A stretch of DNA of 64,000 nucleotides from Methanotorris igneus Kol 5. GTDB lineage: Archaea > AGJL01 > Methanococci > Methanococcales > Methanococcaceae. Shown here one piece after another: positions 5,017 through 64,000 of the stretch. The stretch covers positions 744,001 through 808,000 of the forward strand of contig NC_015562.1 in assembly GCF_000214415.1 (NCBI RefSeq), given 5' to 3'. The notes beneath the pieces were generated by a model. It ran no database searches. It had not been told where the DNA came from and saw only the letters and a list, made by a program, of their open reading frames with translations. The number at the start of each line of letters is the position of its first letter. The first letter of the stretch is position 1. Made by a program: the position numbers and the translations under genes.

Positions 5017-5477
5017 TTTTCACTTTCCAACTTTATGAGCCCAATATACAACTTATTTTAAAAGCTTTTAATTAAAAATGGCTCATATACACATATTTTA
5101 GGCAAACATTTATTAAAAATAAAGCACCATATTGAATATTTATAGTTAGTTTATCAACTTATGCACTAATCATACCTTTTTCATAAGTATGCGGTAAAAC
5201 CTTTTAGGTTTTGCCGTAATATTAAAAGACTCATCAAAATAACCATTAAAAAATAAAAAATTTGGTTTTTATCAAATAAATCGCATCAACATACATTAGA
5301 ACCTTAGAGATTTTGCTAAAAGAAACAATAATAAAAAACATTAGAAACATAATACGGTAAAATCTTTAAGGTTTTGCTAAAAAATATAGAAAGGTAGTCA
5401 GTTAAAATATACAGATGAGCCATTAAATATATTGTTTAAATATACCATTGTTTTACAAAACTATATTTAGTGAGAAA
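5017..5477. repeat. Gene-free repeat-rich intergenic stretch
   Basis: No credible ORF. About 55 bp at 5094-5147 (containing GGCAAACATTTATTAAAAAT) recur at 63385-63441. Two short hairpins built from GGTAAAACC.. and GGTTTTGCC lie at 5190-5217 and near 5352-5380. The next gene has no clear TATA box here. Confidence 0.6.
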
Positions 5478-9057: not shown

Positions 9058-9287
9058 TATAGTTGTGTGCGTTAGAAGTTTAGGCGAAAACTCCTGCGGA
9101 GTTTTCGCTGCTCGAACCTTCGCTTCGATGAACATAACTTCAATAAAATTTATGGGGTATTAAATACTCAATTTCAAAATTTAAAGGAGGAAAAATGACC
9201 ACTTAAAATTTTATAAGTTTTTATAATAAGTTTAAAAATTAATGGCAAAACCCCTAGGTTTTGCCGTATATTTCGCACACAACTATA
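9058..9287. repeat. Hairpin-module inverted-repeat element, TATAGTTGTGTGCG family, type A
   Basis: Perfect 14-bp ends TATAGTTGTGTGCG and CGCACACAACTATA. Inside are hairpins GCGAAAACTCC/GGAGTTTTCGC, a Ser-codon-like CTTCGCTTCG loop and GGCAAAACC/GGTTTTGCC. Close relatives lie at 32165-32387 and, inverted, at 59643-59879. Non-coding. Confidence 0.75.
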
Positions 9288-27263: not shown

Positions 27264-28883
27264 ATGTTCAAGATAGTAGAAAAAAATATAAGAATTAGAA
27301 TTGTATTTGAGAAAAATGTTAATTTTAGGTATTCAATATTTAAAGGAGGAATTGATTTTAGGTGTTCAACATTTGAAGGAGAAGTTGATTTTTGGGGTTC
27401 AACATTTGAAGGAGGAGTTTATTTTATTTTTTCAACATTTAAAGAAGGAGTTTATTTTATTTTTTCAACATTTAAAGAAGGAGTTTATTTTATTTTTTCA
27501 ACATTTAAAGGAGGAGTTTATTTTTGGGATTCAACATTTGAAGAAGAAGTTTATTTTTGGGGTTCAAAATTTAAAGGAGAAGTTGATTTCAGCAATTCAT
27601 CTTTTAATATAGCAAAATTTGAAAAATCAACATTTAAATCCATAACTAAATTTACAGATATTTCATTTGGTCAGTTATCCTTTTTAGAAACAATTTTTGA
27701 GGACATTGTCTTTTTTAAAAAGAAAGAAAAAGATAAAGATAAAGGAATAGTAATTTTCAACTTGGTTAATTTTAAAGAGCCAGAAAATACAACATTTATC
27801 AATTTTTCGTTATCAAAAACATCTTTTTTATTAACGGATGTAAAAGACATAACAATAATTGCAGAAGCGGAGAAAATTTTAGATGATTATTTATTAAAAT
27901 TTATAAAGGAAGAAAAAGAATTGTTTGACAAATTTAAAAATCTATTAAATGATATTAATGAATTAAATAATAAAAAGAATTATCCTTTTACTAATGAAAA
28001 AGAGTTGCAGGAATGCGAAAATAAACTAAAAGAAAAAAATCAAGAATTGGATGAATTAACCAACAAAATAAAAGAAAAAATAGACAAAAAATATGTTAAT
28101 TTTGATAATACTAATCAATATAAGGAATTTTTAAGGGCTTTGGTAGATATTATTTCACCATATTTAAGAGAGGAAACAGTCCTAAAAGAATATAGAAATA
28201 TAAGAAAATCTTTTGAGAACAATAGGACATTTGTTGAAGCTTCTGAATTATTTATTTATGAAATGGAGTTAATGAGAAAAATAGTTGTGCCAAATTATGA
28301 AAAATATAAAATTATTATTTGGATTTTAATAATTTTAATATCTGTATCATTACTATTTGGTTTGTATTTTACAATGATGCTAACACTATTAGTAATCTCG
28401 CTACTGGTGATTTCGTATATAGTCGCATACTTGGGGATTACAAAATATTTATTAAAAATCATAAAATATCTAAAAGAGCTTTTAGAAGGAATTTCATTTG
28501 ATATATACAAAATAACATCAAACTATGGAGAATCAATAACAAAACCAATAATAATATCATTAATTTTTGTGTTGTTTGTATTTCCTATTTTACTACCGAA
28601 CATTGACTTAAAAGCTTTTGATTCAGTAGGTTTGTATATCTATAATCACACACCAGAACCATTAAAAACTACAATGGCACATTATAATGAATTACTTGGG
28701 CAGACATTAAGAGCATTTTTCCAATTAGGAATAGATAAAGATATCATAAATTCAACTACTAATCCAATACAAAAAGAACAATTACAAACATTAGCAAGTT
28801 ATGAATGGTTTATAAGAATCATCTCATTAATCCTACTCGGTAGTTTATTCATAGCAATTAAAAGAAGATTAGAAAGAAAGTAA
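27264..28883 (+). CDS. Pentapeptide-repeat (Pentapeptide_3-like) membrane protein, 3' part of split gene
   Basis: 539 residues. Residues about 22-115 consist of eight or nine 11-residue repeats of the type STFKEGVYFIF, as in the Pentapeptide_3 family with phenylalanine at alternating 5 and 6 spacing. A coiled-coil region (about 215-290) follows. Four to five hydrophobic segments (about 350-395, 427-447 and 514-531) make a C-terminal membrane domain. Such proteins elsewhere carry ion-channel domains; here ALRAFFQLG before the last helix could be a pore-like loop, but I cannot confirm it. The original start was upstream of the insertion sequence. The ATG 27264 has no clear ribosome-binding site. 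Confidence 0.65.
   Translation: MFKIVEKNIRIRIVFEKNVNFRYSIFKGGIDFRCSTFEGEVDFWGSTFEGGVYFIFSTFKEGVYFIFSTFKEGVYFIFSTFKGGVYFWDSTFEEEVYFWGSKFKGEVDFSNSSFNIAKFEKSTFKSITKFTDISFGQLSFLETIFEDIVFFKKKEKDKDKGIVIFNLVNFKEPENTTFINFSLSKTSFLLTDVKDITIIAEAEKILDDYLLKFIKEEKELFDKFKNLLNDINELNNKKNYPFTNEKELQECENKLKEKNQELDELTNKIKEKIDKKYVNFDNTNQYKEFLRALVDIISPYLREETVLKEYRNIRKSFENNRTFVEASELFIYEMELMRKIVVPNYEKYKIIIWILIILISVSLLFGLYFTMMLTLLVISLLVISYIVAYLGITKYLLKIIKYLKELLEGISFDIYKITSNYGESITKPIIISLIFVLFVFPILLPNIDLKAFDSVGLYIYNHTPEPLKTTMAHYNELLGQTLRAFFQLGIDKDIINSTTNPIQKEQLQTLASYEWFIRIISLILLGSLFIAIKRRLERK
27333..27600 (+). repeat. Tandem 33-bp repeats in the pentapeptide-repeat gene
   Basis: Eight 33-bp units, each encoding an 11-residue repeat. 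Three consecutive units near 27417-27515 are nearly identical in nucleotides (TTTAAAGAAGGAGTTTATTT core), which indicates recent expansion by slippage or unequal exchange. The repeats create a long shadow ORF in a second frame. Confidence 0.75.
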
Positions 28884-31015: not shown

Positions 31016-31022
31016 ATTTGCC

Positions 31023-31365
31023 GTTTGAAACTATAAAACTATATATACTATAAATGTGTAGTTATTAATTGTGTTTAATCTTGTAAGTCAATACGATTTC
31101 GGTTGGAAGTTTGTTTTTATACCCCTGCCCAGATGCGGGAGTAAAATGGAGTCCCAAGAGGGCAGGGTTAAAACCATAGCATAGGCGGAGCTGGAGTTCT
31201 CCCGGAGCGAAGCGACGGGAACTTAAAAACCGTTAGGTTTTTATGTCCGTGACAGGGATGGAGACCGATGATATGTTCCCGATGAACCTAGAGGGAACTG
31301 AGGCTGATGACATCCAAGTCCAACGTAGACATTATGTCTATGATTGTTCACGTTGGACAGACCCC
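31023..31365 (+). mobile_element. IS605-type short element (343 bp) with omega-RNA-like right end
   Basis: Left end GTTTGAAACTATAAAAC follows TGCC (31019-31022); right end is ACAGACCCC. The conserved scaffold segment (GGAGCGAAGCGACGGGAACT and GTTAGGTTTTTATGTCC) is at about 31195-31250 and an RE hairpin with arms GTCCAACGT at 31318-31358. Nearly identical to the 58056-58404 copy. No transposase. Confidence 0.75.
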
Positions 31366-32067: not shown

Positions 32068-32164
32068 TATCAATTTTCATTTTTCATCCAATTTTCTATA
32101 AATAAAATTAATATTCTAATATTTTTAATCTTTAATCCTATATTTTTGAATCTTTTATTTATTT

Positions 32165-32387
32165 TATAGTTGTGTGCGCTAAGAGTTTAGGCGAAAACTC
32201 CTGCGGAGTTTTCGCTGCTCGAAGCTTCGCTTCGATGAACATAACTTCAATAAAATTTATGAGGCATTAAACACTCAATTTTAAAAATTTAAAAGGGAAT
32301 AATGACCACTTAAAATTTTACAAGTTTATAAATTAATTTAAAAATTAATGGCAAGATCCATAGGATTTTGCCGTATATATTTTACCA
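32165..32387. repeat. Hairpin-module inverted-repeat element type A, right end lost
   Basis: It starts with TATAGTTGTGTGCG and follows the 9058-9287 element module by module, including GCGAAAACTCC/GGAGTTTTCGC and GGCAAGATCC/GGATTTTGCC with compensating changes. The right terminal repeat is missing: the sequence turns directly into the fdhA leader. Confidence 0.7.
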
Positions 32388-57788: not shown

Positions 57789-58518
57789 ATGAAAGTTAAA
57801 GAGATTATGAATCCGGATATATATAAAGTAGGTGAAAATGAAAATTTGTATAAGGCATTTAAGGTTATGCACGATAGGGGGATTAGAAGAGTTTTTGTTG
57901 AAAAAGACGGAAAAATTGTGGGGGTTATTAGTTATAGAGATTTAGTTAACGTGTTCGTTAGTAGAGGGTTATTTGAATTGATTGAGACAAAAGTTGGAGA
58001 TATAGCAACAAAAAACATCCTTAAAATTCATGAAGATGATGATATCAAAGATGCCGTTTGAAACTGTTTAATTTTTCATTGACGAATGTGGACATTAATG
58101 TATTTTCGTTTTCGAAATTTTTATATATGCATTTATATACATGTAAATATAAGGATGATGCCTCTGATGAAGGTGGATACTGGAGACCTAAGGAGGCGGA
58201 CTTTACTGAGTGTTAAACCTATGGGCGGAGCTGGGGTTCTCCCGGAGCGAAGCGACGGGAACTTAAAAACCGTTAGGTTTTTATGTCCGTGACAGGGATG
58301 GAGACCGATGATATGTTCCCGATGAACCCAGAGGGAACTGAGGCTGATGACATCCAAGTCCAACGTGGACATTTGTCTATGATTGTTCACGTTGGACAGA
58401 CCCCGCAAAAATCATGATTCATGCTGACGTTTCTGCTTTATTGGTTGTTGACAGTGAGGAAAATCCAGTAGGTGTTGTATCTCAAACAGACATTCTTAGG
58501 GCGTTTATTAAAGGATAA
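57789..58518 (+). pseudogene. CBS-domain protein gene split by an IS605-type element
   Basis: The 5' part (ATG 57789 after GGAGG) encodes MKVKEIMNPDIYKVGE to HEDDDIKDA; the 3' part from 58405 reads AKIMIHADVSALLVVDSEEN to LRAFIKG, stop 58516-58518. Removing 58056-58404 joins them as DDIKDA-AKIMIH in frame with no gained or lost base, a complete two-CBS protein of about 126 residues. The gene begins 42 bp after topA. As it stands the protein stops at 58061 after a one-residue tail, cutting the second CBS domain. Confidence 0.85.
58056..58404 (+). mobile_element. IS605-type short element (349 bp) inside the CBS gene
   Basis: Left end GTTTGAAACTGTTTAA follows TGCC; right end ACAGACCCC. Same scaffold segment as the 31-kb copy and an RE hairpin with 10-bp perfect arms GTCCAACGTG at 58358-58397. 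No target duplication, as expected for single-strand transposition. Confidence 0.8.
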
Positions 58519-59642: not shown

Positions 59643-59879
59643 TATAGTCGTGTGCAGAATTAATATAACGGCAAAATCCTATGGATTTTGCCATTAATTT
59701 TTAAACTTATTATAAAAACTTATAAAATTTTAAGTGGTCATTTTTCCTCCTTTAAATTTTGAAATTGAGTGTTTAATACTCCATAAAATTTATTGAAGTT
59801 ATGTTCATCGAACCGAAGGTTCGAGCAGCGAAAACTCCGCAGGAGTTTTCGCCTAAACTTCTAACGCACACAACTATAA
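59643..59879. repeat. Hairpin-module inverted-repeat element type A, inverted copy
   Basis: It is the reverse of the 9058-9287 element: TATAGTCGTGTGC at the left, CGCACACAACTATA at the right, the GGCAAAATCC/GGATTTTGCC hairpin now on the left, and GCGAAAACTCC/GGAGTTTTCGC on the right. It ends 1 bp before the stop codon of the next gene. Confidence 0.75.
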
Positions 59880-59880
59880 A

Positions 59881-60315
59881 TTACATCCACGAAATTTCTT
59901 CTTCCTCGTTATCTTCTCCTAAGTCTAAAGTAATGTTTAAAAATTCCTCTGCCCATAGGGCGTATTTTGTAAATGAATAAACAATATCATCCTTAATCCA
60001 AAACATTGTAAAAACTGCAACCTTATTGATGTATTTTTCAAATGACCTAATTTTGCTGTTGTATTCTACTATTCTTTTATCCCCACGTTTTTCTGGGTAT
60101 AGGTTTGATTCTATGTGTTCTTTTGTAAATAAATCCTTTTTTATGAACATCGTTTTTACACCCTCATATTTAGCAACCATGATGAAACTCTTCCAATCAT
60201 CCCCTCCCCATCGAATTTCTGGGAAATTTTCTAAGGTATCTGAGGTTGGATAGATTAAAAACCCTTCTTTTTTCAAAAAATCCTCTACCATTGTGATAAA
60301 TTCTTCTAACTCCAT
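59881..60315 (-). CDS. Hypothetical protein (144 aa)
   Basis: An acidic protein with a helix-rich N-terminus (ELEEFITMVEDFLKKEGFL), a central RWGGDDWKSF segment and alternating strands ending in a Glu/Asp-rich tail (EDNEEEEISWM). No family recognised. The start follows an ATATAATGG context without a strong ribosome-binding site. It is monocistronic and separated from its neighbour by 83 bp. Confidence 0.65.
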   Translation of the reverse strand: MELEEFITMVEDFLKKEGFLIYPTSDTLENFPEIRWGGDDWKSFIMVAKYEGVKTMFIKKDLFTKEHIESNLYPEKRGDKRIVEYNSKIRSFEKYINKVAVFTMFWIKDDIVYSFTKYALWAEEFLNITLDLGEDNEEEEISWM

Positions 60316-61770: not shown

Positions 61771-61792
61771 ATTTTCACCATTATTTGTATAC

Positions 61793-63225
61793 GGGGTTCT
61801 CCCAACGTGGTCAAATATGGACAATTATGAACATTTAAGATATTTACCATTTAAATCTACATAATAGACCACGTTGGGATTGGGCGTCATCAGTCTCTTA
61901 ACAGAGACCTCTGCCCCTGTCATGGACATAAAAACCTAACGGTTTTTAAGTTCTCGTCGCTTCGCTCCGAGATAACCCCCGAGCCACCCATAAACCTTTT
62001 GATTACACCCAAACCTCGTTTAAAAATATTAAAACAGCCAACTACTTGGCGATTAAAAGAGTTTGAACAATTATAGCAAACAACCTGCCCTTCTTGGGAC
62101 TCCATTCTACTCCCGCATATAGGACAGGTCGTTGAAGTGTAGGCAGGATTAACTAAGATAACAATCGCCTTATAACTTATTTTTTCGATTATTCCATTCC
62201 AATTCGCTCTATCTATTCTTCTATTGAAGTATTTATTTTTATACATACTTCTCTTATTCAAATCCTCAAAAACAAAAATTGCATTTGGAAATAGTCGAGA
62301 TAATTGTGTTGTAAGTTTGTGTAAAAAGTCCTTAACTCTATTTCTTCTCCTTTCGAATAACCTATTTATCTTTCTCAAAACTCTTAAAGGACATTTTTTG
62401 AGCAGTTTTTTAAGGAAATCGATTTTCCTATCATAAACTTCTTTAAGTCGGTGTAATTCGGTTAAATCTATCCTTATCCAACCCTCTATCGGATGGAATA
62501 AGTCGAGGGATTTTAGATTGCTATCTACTCCAACGATTATATCTTTGTCTGAATAGTTTAGATTATCTTTGAAGGTTAAGAATGCTTCATTTTCCTTTAA
62601 AATAATTTCTCCAATTGTTAAGTCCTTAACCTTATCAAAGAACCATTCATTTTTGATGTTTAAGGTTAAATACTCTTTTCTTGGTTTTATCGTTATTCTT
62701 ATCTCCGCTCTTTCTTTGTCGTATTTTATTAGAGTTGTTTTAACTCTAACGAATAACCTCTCTACTACCGGTTTTGTTTTAGTTCTATAACCTCTTTTGT
62801 AGTTCGAAGCCCAACTTTGTAGGATGGAATAGGCGGTTTTTATAATCCCATCGATGTAGTGGGAGGCATAACTCCAATTTTCTAAGAGTTTGTTTCTTAG
62901 GTTTCTTTTGAATTCGTTTGATTTTGGTAGTTTTGGTTTATCTTTTTTAGTGTATTCTATGTTATTCCAAATCATGTCTATGCATTCGTTTAACTTATCT
63001 TTACATTCGATTAAGAACGTTTTAAGTGGATAGTTATGACTAACTTTATAGGATAGAACGACTTGATAGGATAATTCCTGATTCTCTTTTGATTTTGTTT
63101 TATTTGACATAGTAATCGTTGTTTGTTTTTAATAGAACTATCCTATCATCAAATATTTAAAAGTTTCTTCAATATTTATTCACAAATGTTCATAAATGTC
63201 CATGTATAATTAAACAGTTTCAAAC
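61793..63225 (-). mobile_element. IS605-type element with tnpB (1433 bp), no tnpA
   Basis: Left end at 63225 (GTTTGAAACTGTTTAA following TGCC at 63229-63226 on the minus strand), right end AGAACCCC at 61793. An RE hairpin with 13-bp arms TCCCAACGTGGTC lies at 61800-61812 and 61867-61879. It carries tnpB only, so movement needs a TnpA supplied elsewhere. Confidence 0.82.
61920..63110 (-). CDS. tnpB: TnpB RNA-guided nuclease, third catalytic Asp replaced by Asn
   Basis: 396 residues with the TnpB layout. RuvC-I Asp196 is in GVDSN, RuvC-II Glu282 in FVFEDLN, and the zinc finger Cys329, Cys332, Cys345, Cys348. The RuvC-III motif, normally DRQVV or DRDVN, reads NSFNRQVVGC with Asn353 (codon AAT) at the catalytic position, so DNA cutting is probably lost. 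The C-terminal 22 codons overlap the omega-RNA scaffold. TnpB binds RNA from the right end and cuts at the element target. Loss of the Asp hints at a TldR-like role or decay. Confidence 0.85.
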   Translation of the reverse strand: MSNKTKSKENQELSYQVVLSYKVSHNYPLKTFLIECKDKLNECIDMIWNNIEYTKKDKPKLPKSNEFKRNLRNKLLENWSYASHYIDGIIKTAYSILQSWASNYKRGYRTKTKPVVERLFVRVKTTLIKYDKERAEIRITIKPRKEYLTLNIKNEWFFDKVKDLTIGEIILKENEAFLTFKDNLNYSDKDIIVGVDSNLKSLDLFHPIEGWIRIDLTELHRLKEVYDRKIDFLKKLLKKCPLRVLRKINRLFERRRNRVKDFLHKLTTQLSRLFPNAIFVFEDLNKRSMYKNKYFNRRIDRANWNGIIEKISYKAIVILVNPAYTSTTCPICGSRMESQEGQVVCYNCSNSFNRQVVGCFNIFKRGLGVIKRFMGGSGVISERSDENLKTVRFLCP

Positions 63226-64000
63226 GGCAAAATCCAAAGGATTTTGCCAAAAGGGGCATTGCTGAGCGAAGCGAGGTGTGCATCCGATTTGGATGAAATC
63301 GAACCGAAGGTTCGAGCAGCGAAATCTTTGTAGGAGTTTTCGCCTAATCGAACCGTAAGGTAAAACCGATAAGGTCTTACTTAAATATTTTAGGCAAACA
63401 TTTATTAAAAATAAAGCATCATATTGAATATTTATAGTTATTCTGTCAACTTCTACACTATTTCAAGATCTTTTTCACAAGTTTGAGTATTACTATAAAC
63501 AAAAAATCTCTCAAAAAATACGGCAAAACCTAAAAGGTTTTGCCAAAAATTTTTGGTAAAGCCATTTGGATTTTGCGTATATTTTTTGGCAAAACCTTAG
63601 GTTTTGCCGTATATTTTTGATGTTAAAGAATAACCACATATTTAAATTTTTTAATTATGCACTACCCTCAAAAAGAGTATTTTTAATAATGATTAACTTA
63701 AAGACTCTCCCAAAAATATAGGTTATTTATAGTTAGTTTTCCAATTTCTGCACTATTCCAATACCATTTCATAGATTGAGTTCAGCTAATATAAAAGTTC
63801 CATCAAAATCAGCCACTAAAAAAGCAAAAATCTTAACACTAGCATGATATTGCGAGAGTTCCTTCTGATAAACTAACATCATTTAACCCCTTAGCAATGA
63901 CTGATTTTTCTACCATTCTGTTTCTTTTTAGAATGGATATTTTCATTTCTATTTTTACAATATCTTTTGAAATAAATATTGTGCTTTTAAATTCAACAAT
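63226..64000. repeat. Repeat-rich right end of the window without genes
   Basis: Contains hairpin modules found elsewhere: GGCAAAATCC/GGATTTTGCC, GCATTGCT.. AGCAATGC, CGAACC/GGTTCG and GGCAAAACC/GGTTTTGCC. A ~55-bp sequence at 63385-63441 recurs at 5094-5147, and a related ~60-bp unit follows at 63716-63780. I see no credible gene. Confidence 0.6.

What the first reader, a model, noticed from the sequence alone, without database searches (positions are those of the whole stretch)
61920..63110. TnpB with Asn in place of the RuvC-III aspartate
The frame is intact and Asp196 and Glu282 are present, but the third catalytic residue is Asn353 (NRQVV in place of DRQVV). The protein probably binds its omega RNA and target without cutting. 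Nuclease-dead TnpB relatives (TldR) are known to act as RNA-guided repressors. With three short elements in the same window carrying the matching RNA end, this protein could in principle be guided to several places.
Basis: partly seen in the sequence, partly recalled or inferred. Interest (0 to 1): 0.62.

Follow-up and report, generated by a model that had tools for sequence, protein, structure and literature searches.

The report
Mobile TnpB clade lacking RuvC-III aspartate
This RNA-guided transposon protein belongs to a family of jumping-gene proteins in methane-making archaea in which one of three DNA-cutting residues was replaced once, long ago, by glutamine, yet the family kept spreading and stayed under selection, so it may cut DNA in an unusual way or bind without cutting.

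Summary
The gene is real, intact and TnpB-like, and it lacks the RuvC-III Asp. The catalytic position (ISDra2 D361) is Gln355. It is not a private mutation. All 10 full-length copies in this genome, and every intact relative aligned from other genomes of the order, carry F(N/D)RQ..G..NI. The change arose once in the tree, and the family has stayed under strong purifying selection since (dN/dS about 0.08-0.10), with D196 and E282 invariant and the RuvC motifs among its most conserved parts. The copies sit in IS607-type elements (CC/GG core, no target duplication, a proven empty site in the sister species). Four intact serine-recombinase TnpA genes lie beside a sister subfamily, and 24 tnpB-less short elements share the ends and RNA-like 3' region, each with its own flank/guide. 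This looks like a working mobile family, not a domesticated TldR repressor: no fixed neighbour, no trans target for its guide. Best reading: an RNA-guided transposon protein with a remodelled RuvC site. Whether it cuts is undecided; I lean slightly to retained, altered cleavage over binding only.

The parts
61920..63110 (-). tnpB gene, 396 aa, subfamily SF1 (one of 4 near-identical full copies in the genome)
   Evidence: TnpB/Cas12f fold
62046..62048 (-). Gln355 codon (CAA), at the position of the catalytic RuvC-III Asp (ISDra2 D361)
62052..62054 (-).
62523..62525 (-). Asp196, RuvC-I catalytic Asp, present and invariant in the clade
62265..62267 (-). Glu282, RuvC-II catalytic Glu, present and invariant (codon wobbles GAG/GAA)
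62502..62504 (-). Asp203, acidic residue on strand beta2 next to Asp196, invariant in this clade and A/L/V in ordinary TnpBs; candidate surrogate ligand (inference)
61793..63227 (-). whole element, CC to CC, 1435 bp, no tnpA inside
61793..61990 (-). RNA-like 3' region (omegaRNA scaffold candidate): 3' end of tnpB to the right end
   Evidence: shared by 24 short elements; covarying terminal hairpin; transcription not tested
61801..61878 (-). terminal hairpin; arms 61867-61878 and 61801-61812 covary across copies
61926..61972 (-). 47-nt hairpin insert that truncates the C-terminal tail; in 6 of 10 tnpB copies and all 24 short elements
61773..61792 (-). right flank = expected guide (GTATACAAATAATGGTGAAA); only its own site matches in the genome
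10302..10561 (+). short tnpB-less element, 260 bp, RNA end closest to this tnpB copy (97% over 71 nt)
31021..31365 (+). short tnpB-less element, 345 bp, SF2-like RNA end
58054..58404 (+). short tnpB-less element, 351 bp, inserted in a CBS-domain gene; empty site seen in relatives

Best explanation
The gene encodes the TnpB of an IS607-type mobile element family in Methanococcales. Its RuvC site was remodelled once, at the base of the clade: catalytic RuvC-III Asp -> Gln355, with D196 and E282 kept. SHOWN: the substitution, its single origin, its presence in every intact copy, purifying selection, IS607-type insertion, and short elements sharing ends and RNA-like 3' regions with varied flanks. 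INFERRED: the protein binds an RNA made from the right end plus the flanking host sequence, and is led to the unoccupied donor or target site. There it either still cuts or nicks DNA with an altered metal site (Gln355 as neutral ligand, perhaps helped by the new clade-specific Asp203 on the strand beside D196), thereby aiding retention of the element, or at least binds it. I commit to the version in which the remodelled site is still functional in DNA cleavage, as slightly more likely than binding only.
For: Clade-wide and single origin. Purifying selection: dN/dS 0.083 within SF1, 0.099 within SF2, 0.084 among the 4 own SF1 copies; Q355 invariant although its codon wobbles CAA/CAG. Conservation between subfamilies is highest in RuvC-I (0.78), RuvC-III (0.80), TNB (0.78) and RuvC-II (0.71), against 0.48-0.59 elsewhere, much the same order as in D-type TnpBs: not what relaxation of a dead site predicts. 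Asp203 is clade-invariant where D-type TnpBs have A/L/V. Mobility: 10 full copies, 24 short elements, CC core, no duplication, proven empty site, 4 intact TnpA. Tolerance at the last RNase H-fold ligand elsewhere: X of DEDX is D, H or K in Argonautes (PMC6299218); FnCas12a D1255A decreased rather than abolished trans-cleavage (PMC5939048).
Against: D371A, the equivalent position in the IS607 TnpB of ISFba1, abolishes cleavage and interference (PMC11061315). A DRQ.NA motif is almost absent among other TnpBs (1 hit against at least 120 for DRD.NA in viral contigs). Conserved RuvC motifs can also serve DNA binding without cleavage, as in Cas12m (PMC10442227). Asp203 is only one of 7 clade-specific invariant acidic positions. 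No coordinates were available to measure distances, and nothing here shows expression.
Confidence: 0.45

Rival explanations
1. Nuclease-dead but functional RNA-guided DNA binder that still belongs to the transposon: it sits on donor or empty sites or element ends and regulates transposition or nearby transcription, without being domesticated.
For: The RuvC-III Asp is absent in every copy; D371A kills the IS607 TnpB of ISFba1; Cas12m shows that a non-canonical RuvC site can be kept for tight DNA binding; ISDra2 TnpB has been reported as a negative regulator of transposition (cited within PMC6188088).
Against: D196, E282 and all three RuvC motif segments remain among the most constrained parts; no obvious benefit that would drive spread.
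Confidence: 0.37
2. TldR-like domesticated repressor: nuclease-dead TnpB exapted by the host to repress chosen genes, with the short elements supplying guides.
For: Third catalytic Asp missing; several RNA-like ends with different guides in the window; this element lies just upstream of a gene start, so its guide covers that ribosome-binding region.
Against: 10 dispersed copies plus 24 short elements at unrelated sites with different flanks; transposon ends and TnpA intact; no second target for the window copy's guide with up to 2 mismatches; the whole clade shares the change, so there is no domestication event at this locus.
Confidence: 0.06
3. Decaying hitch-hiker: TnpB is a functionless passenger and elements spread only through TnpA.
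For: tnpA alone suffices for IS607 transposition (PMC6188088); 24 short elements spread without tnpB; one fragment and several broken copies exist.
Against: dN/dS of 0.08-0.10 within subfamilies and 0.084 among recent own copies; ten open full-length frames in one genome.
Confidence: 0.12

Closest known systems
IS607-family TnpB (e.g. ISFba1 TnpB; ISDra2 TnpB for residue numbering)
   Same: Same fold and domain order, RuvC-I Asp and RuvC-II Glu, CCCC zinc ribbon, RNA-like right end with guide in the flank, GG/CC-core insertion
   Different: RuvC-III catalytic Asp replaced by Gln in the whole clade; xNAA replaced by VVG (VVG is shared with sister D-type archaeal TnpBs); no Rfam RNA family matched at gathering score
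TldR (TnpB-like nuclease-dead repressors)
   Same: A catalytic residue of RuvC is lost while the protein stays under selection
   Different: Mobile and multicopy, ends and TnpA intact, guides vary, no fixed host-gene partner; two of three catalytic residues invariant
Cas12m (HDD RuvC site, binds without dsDNA cleavage)
   Same: Natural non-canonical RuvC site in a TnpB descendant
   Different: Cas12m changes RuvC-I (His) and RuvC-II (Asp) and keeps the RuvC-III Asp; here only RuvC-III changes; no CRISPR link
TnpB/Fanzor with E-alt rearranged RuvC-II glutamate
   Same: Precedent for a moved catalytic residue in active TnpB relatives (PMC10711439)
   Different: There the Glu moved; here the Asp is lost and no replacement is shown

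Membership tests
TnpB (RNA-guided endonuclease family) | Family profile and fold | tested here: met
   NF040570 123.6 bits over cut-off 100; Foldseek best matches Cas12f/TnpB
TnpB (RNA-guided endonuclease family) | DED catalytic triad | tested here: not met
   D196, E282 present; third position is Gln355
TnpB (RNA-guided endonuclease family) | Zinc-ribbon CxxC...CxxC between RuvC-II and RuvC-III | tested here: met
   C329, C332, C345, C348 invariant
TnpB (RNA-guided endonuclease family) | RNA from the right end with guide in the flank | tested here: inconclusive
   Conserved 3' region with covarying terminal hairpin and variable flanks; no transcript data
IS607 family element | GG/CC dinucleotide at both ends, no target duplication | tested here: met
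   All 28 elements analysed are CC...CC (one reads CT at the right end), G before in 27; empty site with one CC position, ungapped, in sister species G021; rule from PMC6188088
IS607 family element | Serine-recombinase TnpA | tested here: inconclusive
   4 intact copies in the genome, upstream of SF2 tnpB; absent from SF1 elements such as this one, which would need mobilising in trans
IS200/IS605 family element | Y1 HUH TnpA in the genome | tested here: not met
   PF01797: no match in own genome, controls positive
TldR | Loss of RuvC catalytic residues | tested here: inconclusive
   One of three lost, two invariant
TldR | Stable partnership with a non-transposon gene | tested here: not met
   Copies at unrelated sites with different flanks
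TldR | Guide matches a host promoter away from the gene | tested here: not met
   CC+15 nt of this copy's guide, <=2 mismatches: only its own site; other copies' guides not tested
TldR | Repression of the target | not testable with these tools
   Needs expression experiments

The most novel reading that the evidence does not exclude
A whole clade of mobile archaeal TnpBs cleaves DNA with a rearranged RuvC site in which the third carboxylate is replaced by Gln355, with Asp203 on the neighbouring strand as a new ligand, so the DED triad is not required for an active TnpB.
Probability: 0.3. Interest if true: 0.68.

Novelty: new variant of a known kind. Interest (0 to 1): 0.5.

Why it matters
Active-site intactness is the criterion used to sort TnpB relatives into nucleases and nuclease-dead repressors. 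A transposon clade that lost the RuvC-III Asp once, kept everything else and still multiplied is a natural test of that criterion. Either TnpB can cut without this Asp, or a binding-only TnpB can be kept under selection by a mobile element. Both answers bear on how TldRs and Cas12m-type binders arise.

Tried and rejected
Private point mutation or sequencing error: rejected, all 10 copies and other genomes agree. Asn353 as the catalytic position: rejected by alignment and by natural N/D variation. IS200/IS605 element: no Y1 TnpA. Viral relatives of the Q-clade: none found. Named RNA family: nothing at gathering score; a sub-threshold SNORD70 match over the terminal hairpin (34 of 50 bits) is taken as chance. 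Phylum-wide search reached only the 36 genomes of this order, so occurrence beyond the order is tested only by the single genome-contig scan and the viral scans. The first DRQ pattern scan was out of frame and was repeated. Wiegand 2024 and Altae-Tran 2023 are not held, so TldR criteria rest on PMC13418256 and on my knowledge.

Full report
OBSERVATION. The ORF at 61920-63110 (-) is intact, 396 aa, and is a TnpB by profile, sequence and fold. Against ISDra2 TnpB the window 'SFNRQVVGCFNI' aligns with 'THDRDENAALNI'. Counting back from residue 373 of the 408-aa chain, N353 faces D359 and Q355 faces D361. The catalytic set of ISDra2 is D191, E278, D361 (PMC10097598). In the AF2 model (mean pLDDT 80, about 90 in RuvC) Q355 is the second residue of the last helix, matching D361. 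At position 353 Asn is ordinary: three close relatives (L067, L070, L083) have Asp there with Gln355 kept, and other TnpBs carry NAD.N motifs with Asn at that place (L045, L051, L178).

HOW WIDESPREAD. The own genome (1,854,197 bp, one contig; the size fits Methanotorris igneus from memory, not tested) holds 10 full-length copies and one fragment, in two subfamilies: SF1 (4 copies, 95-98% identical to the window protein) and SF2 (6 copies, about 60-64%). All share FNRQ. Across 36 genomes of the order, the motif F[N/D]RQ.VG occurs 28 times in 13 genomes, control 0. The nearest other archaeal TnpBs (L049, L089, L085, L055) have DRD. A 49-protein tree gives one change of state, with the Q-clade at 100/100. 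Elsewhere the motif is rare: in viral contigs DRQ.NA scored 1 hit against at least 120 for DRD.NA (a pattern count, not a census).

SELECTION. Nei-Gojobori dN/dS medians are 0.083 (SF1), 0.099 (SF2) and 0.084 among the four own SF1 copies. D196, E282, Q355 and the four zinc cysteines are invariant in 21 sequences; codons for E282 and Q355 vary silently. About 40% of columns are invariant, so invariance of any one residue is weak evidence alone. More telling, identity between SF1 and SF2 is 0.78 in RuvC-I, 0.71 in RuvC-II, 0.78 in the zinc domain and 0.80 in RuvC-III, against 0.59 in the N-terminal half, 0.57 in the helices and 0.48 in the segment after RuvC-II, much as in D-type TnpBs. A dead site should have relaxed. 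A new acidic residue, Asp203, is invariant on the strand next to D196, where D-type TnpBs have Ala, Leu or Val. It is one of seven clade-specific invariant acids, so its role as a surrogate ligand is only a suggestion.

ELEMENT. The window element spans 61793-63227. All 28 SF1-type and short elements analysed begin CCGTT and end ACCCC (one reads GATCCT), with G before the first CC in 27. No duplication is seen, and joining the flanks with one CC kept restores the reading frame of the CBS-domain gene at 58 kb. The sister species has that site empty and ungapped. This is IS607-type insertion (GG core, no duplication; PMC6188088). No Y1 transposase exists in the genome. Four intact serine-recombinase tnpA genes sit upstream of SF2 tnpB copies. 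The SF1 elements have none, so they are presumably mobilised in trans (inference).

RNA-LIKE END AND SHORT ELEMENTS. Twenty-four tnpB-less elements, three of them in the window, share ends and the 3' region. Their right flanks, the expected guides, all differ. The terminal hairpin keeps pairing through compensatory changes (CCCAACGTGGTC/GACCACGTTGGG, CCATCGTGAGGG/TCCTCACGATGG, CCAATATGGGTA/TACCCATATTGG, CCCGACGTGATT/AATCACGTCGGG). A 47-nt two-hairpin insert lies in 6 of 10 tnpB copies and all 24 short elements, accounting for all 30 genome occurrences of its core. It truncates the C-terminal tail of the window protein. In ISDra2, stops after residue 376 are tolerated (PMC11844463), so this should be harmless. 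The guide of the window copy matches only its own site.

MECHANISM. Shown: loss of Asp at 355 once, retention and selection, mobility, shared ends. Inferred: RNA-guided binding to empty sites. Open: cutting. For death: ISFba1 D371A is inactive. For an altered but working site: constraint on the RuvC motifs, D196 and E282 kept, the spread of the family, and the known tolerance at the last ligand position (Argonaute DEDX with X = D, H, K; FnCas12a D1255A decreased rather than abolished trans-cleavage). I put retained altered cleavage at about 0.45, binding-only within the transposon at about 0.37, a passenger at 0.12 and a domesticated TldR at 0.06.

VERDICT. A new variant of a known kind; worth a bench test.

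Noticed in passing
61926-61972: 47-nt two-hairpin insert found only inside these elements (30 copies in the genome), present and absent within both tnpB subfamilies at the homologous place; its stem differs compensatorily between subfamilies (CTCG..CGAG against CCCG..CGGG). Suggests exchange of RNA-end modules between subfamilies.
   Followed up: partly
L100, L102, L104: Three short elements carry a further nested insert inside the 47-nt hairpin module, with ATAGTTGTGTGCG...CGCACACAACTAT ends.
   Followed up: no
58054-58404: Short element interrupts a CBS-domain protein gene; intact in the sister species.
   Followed up: yes
9058-9271, 32157-32378, 59674-59886: Another repeat family of about 200 bp, three copies in both orientations, 85-97% alike, not related to the tnpB element.
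   Followed up: no
5093-5168 and 63385-63460: A 76-nt repeat, 92% alike, one copy just beyond the left end of the tnpB element.
   Followed up: no
63200-63620: Palindromic GGCAAAAnCC..GGnTTTTGCC-like units; several elements of the family (window, L100, L109, L112) are inserted at the GCC end of such units.
   Followed up: no
27305-27601: 33-nt tandem repeats typical of a pentapeptide-repeat protein gene; tnpB copy L002 appears inserted in a similar repeat gene elsewhere.
   Followed up: no
61801-61878: Sub-threshold Rfam match to SNORD70 (C/D box) over the terminal hairpin, 34 of 50 bits; GATGA-like boxes recur in the RNA end. Probably chance.
   Followed up: partly
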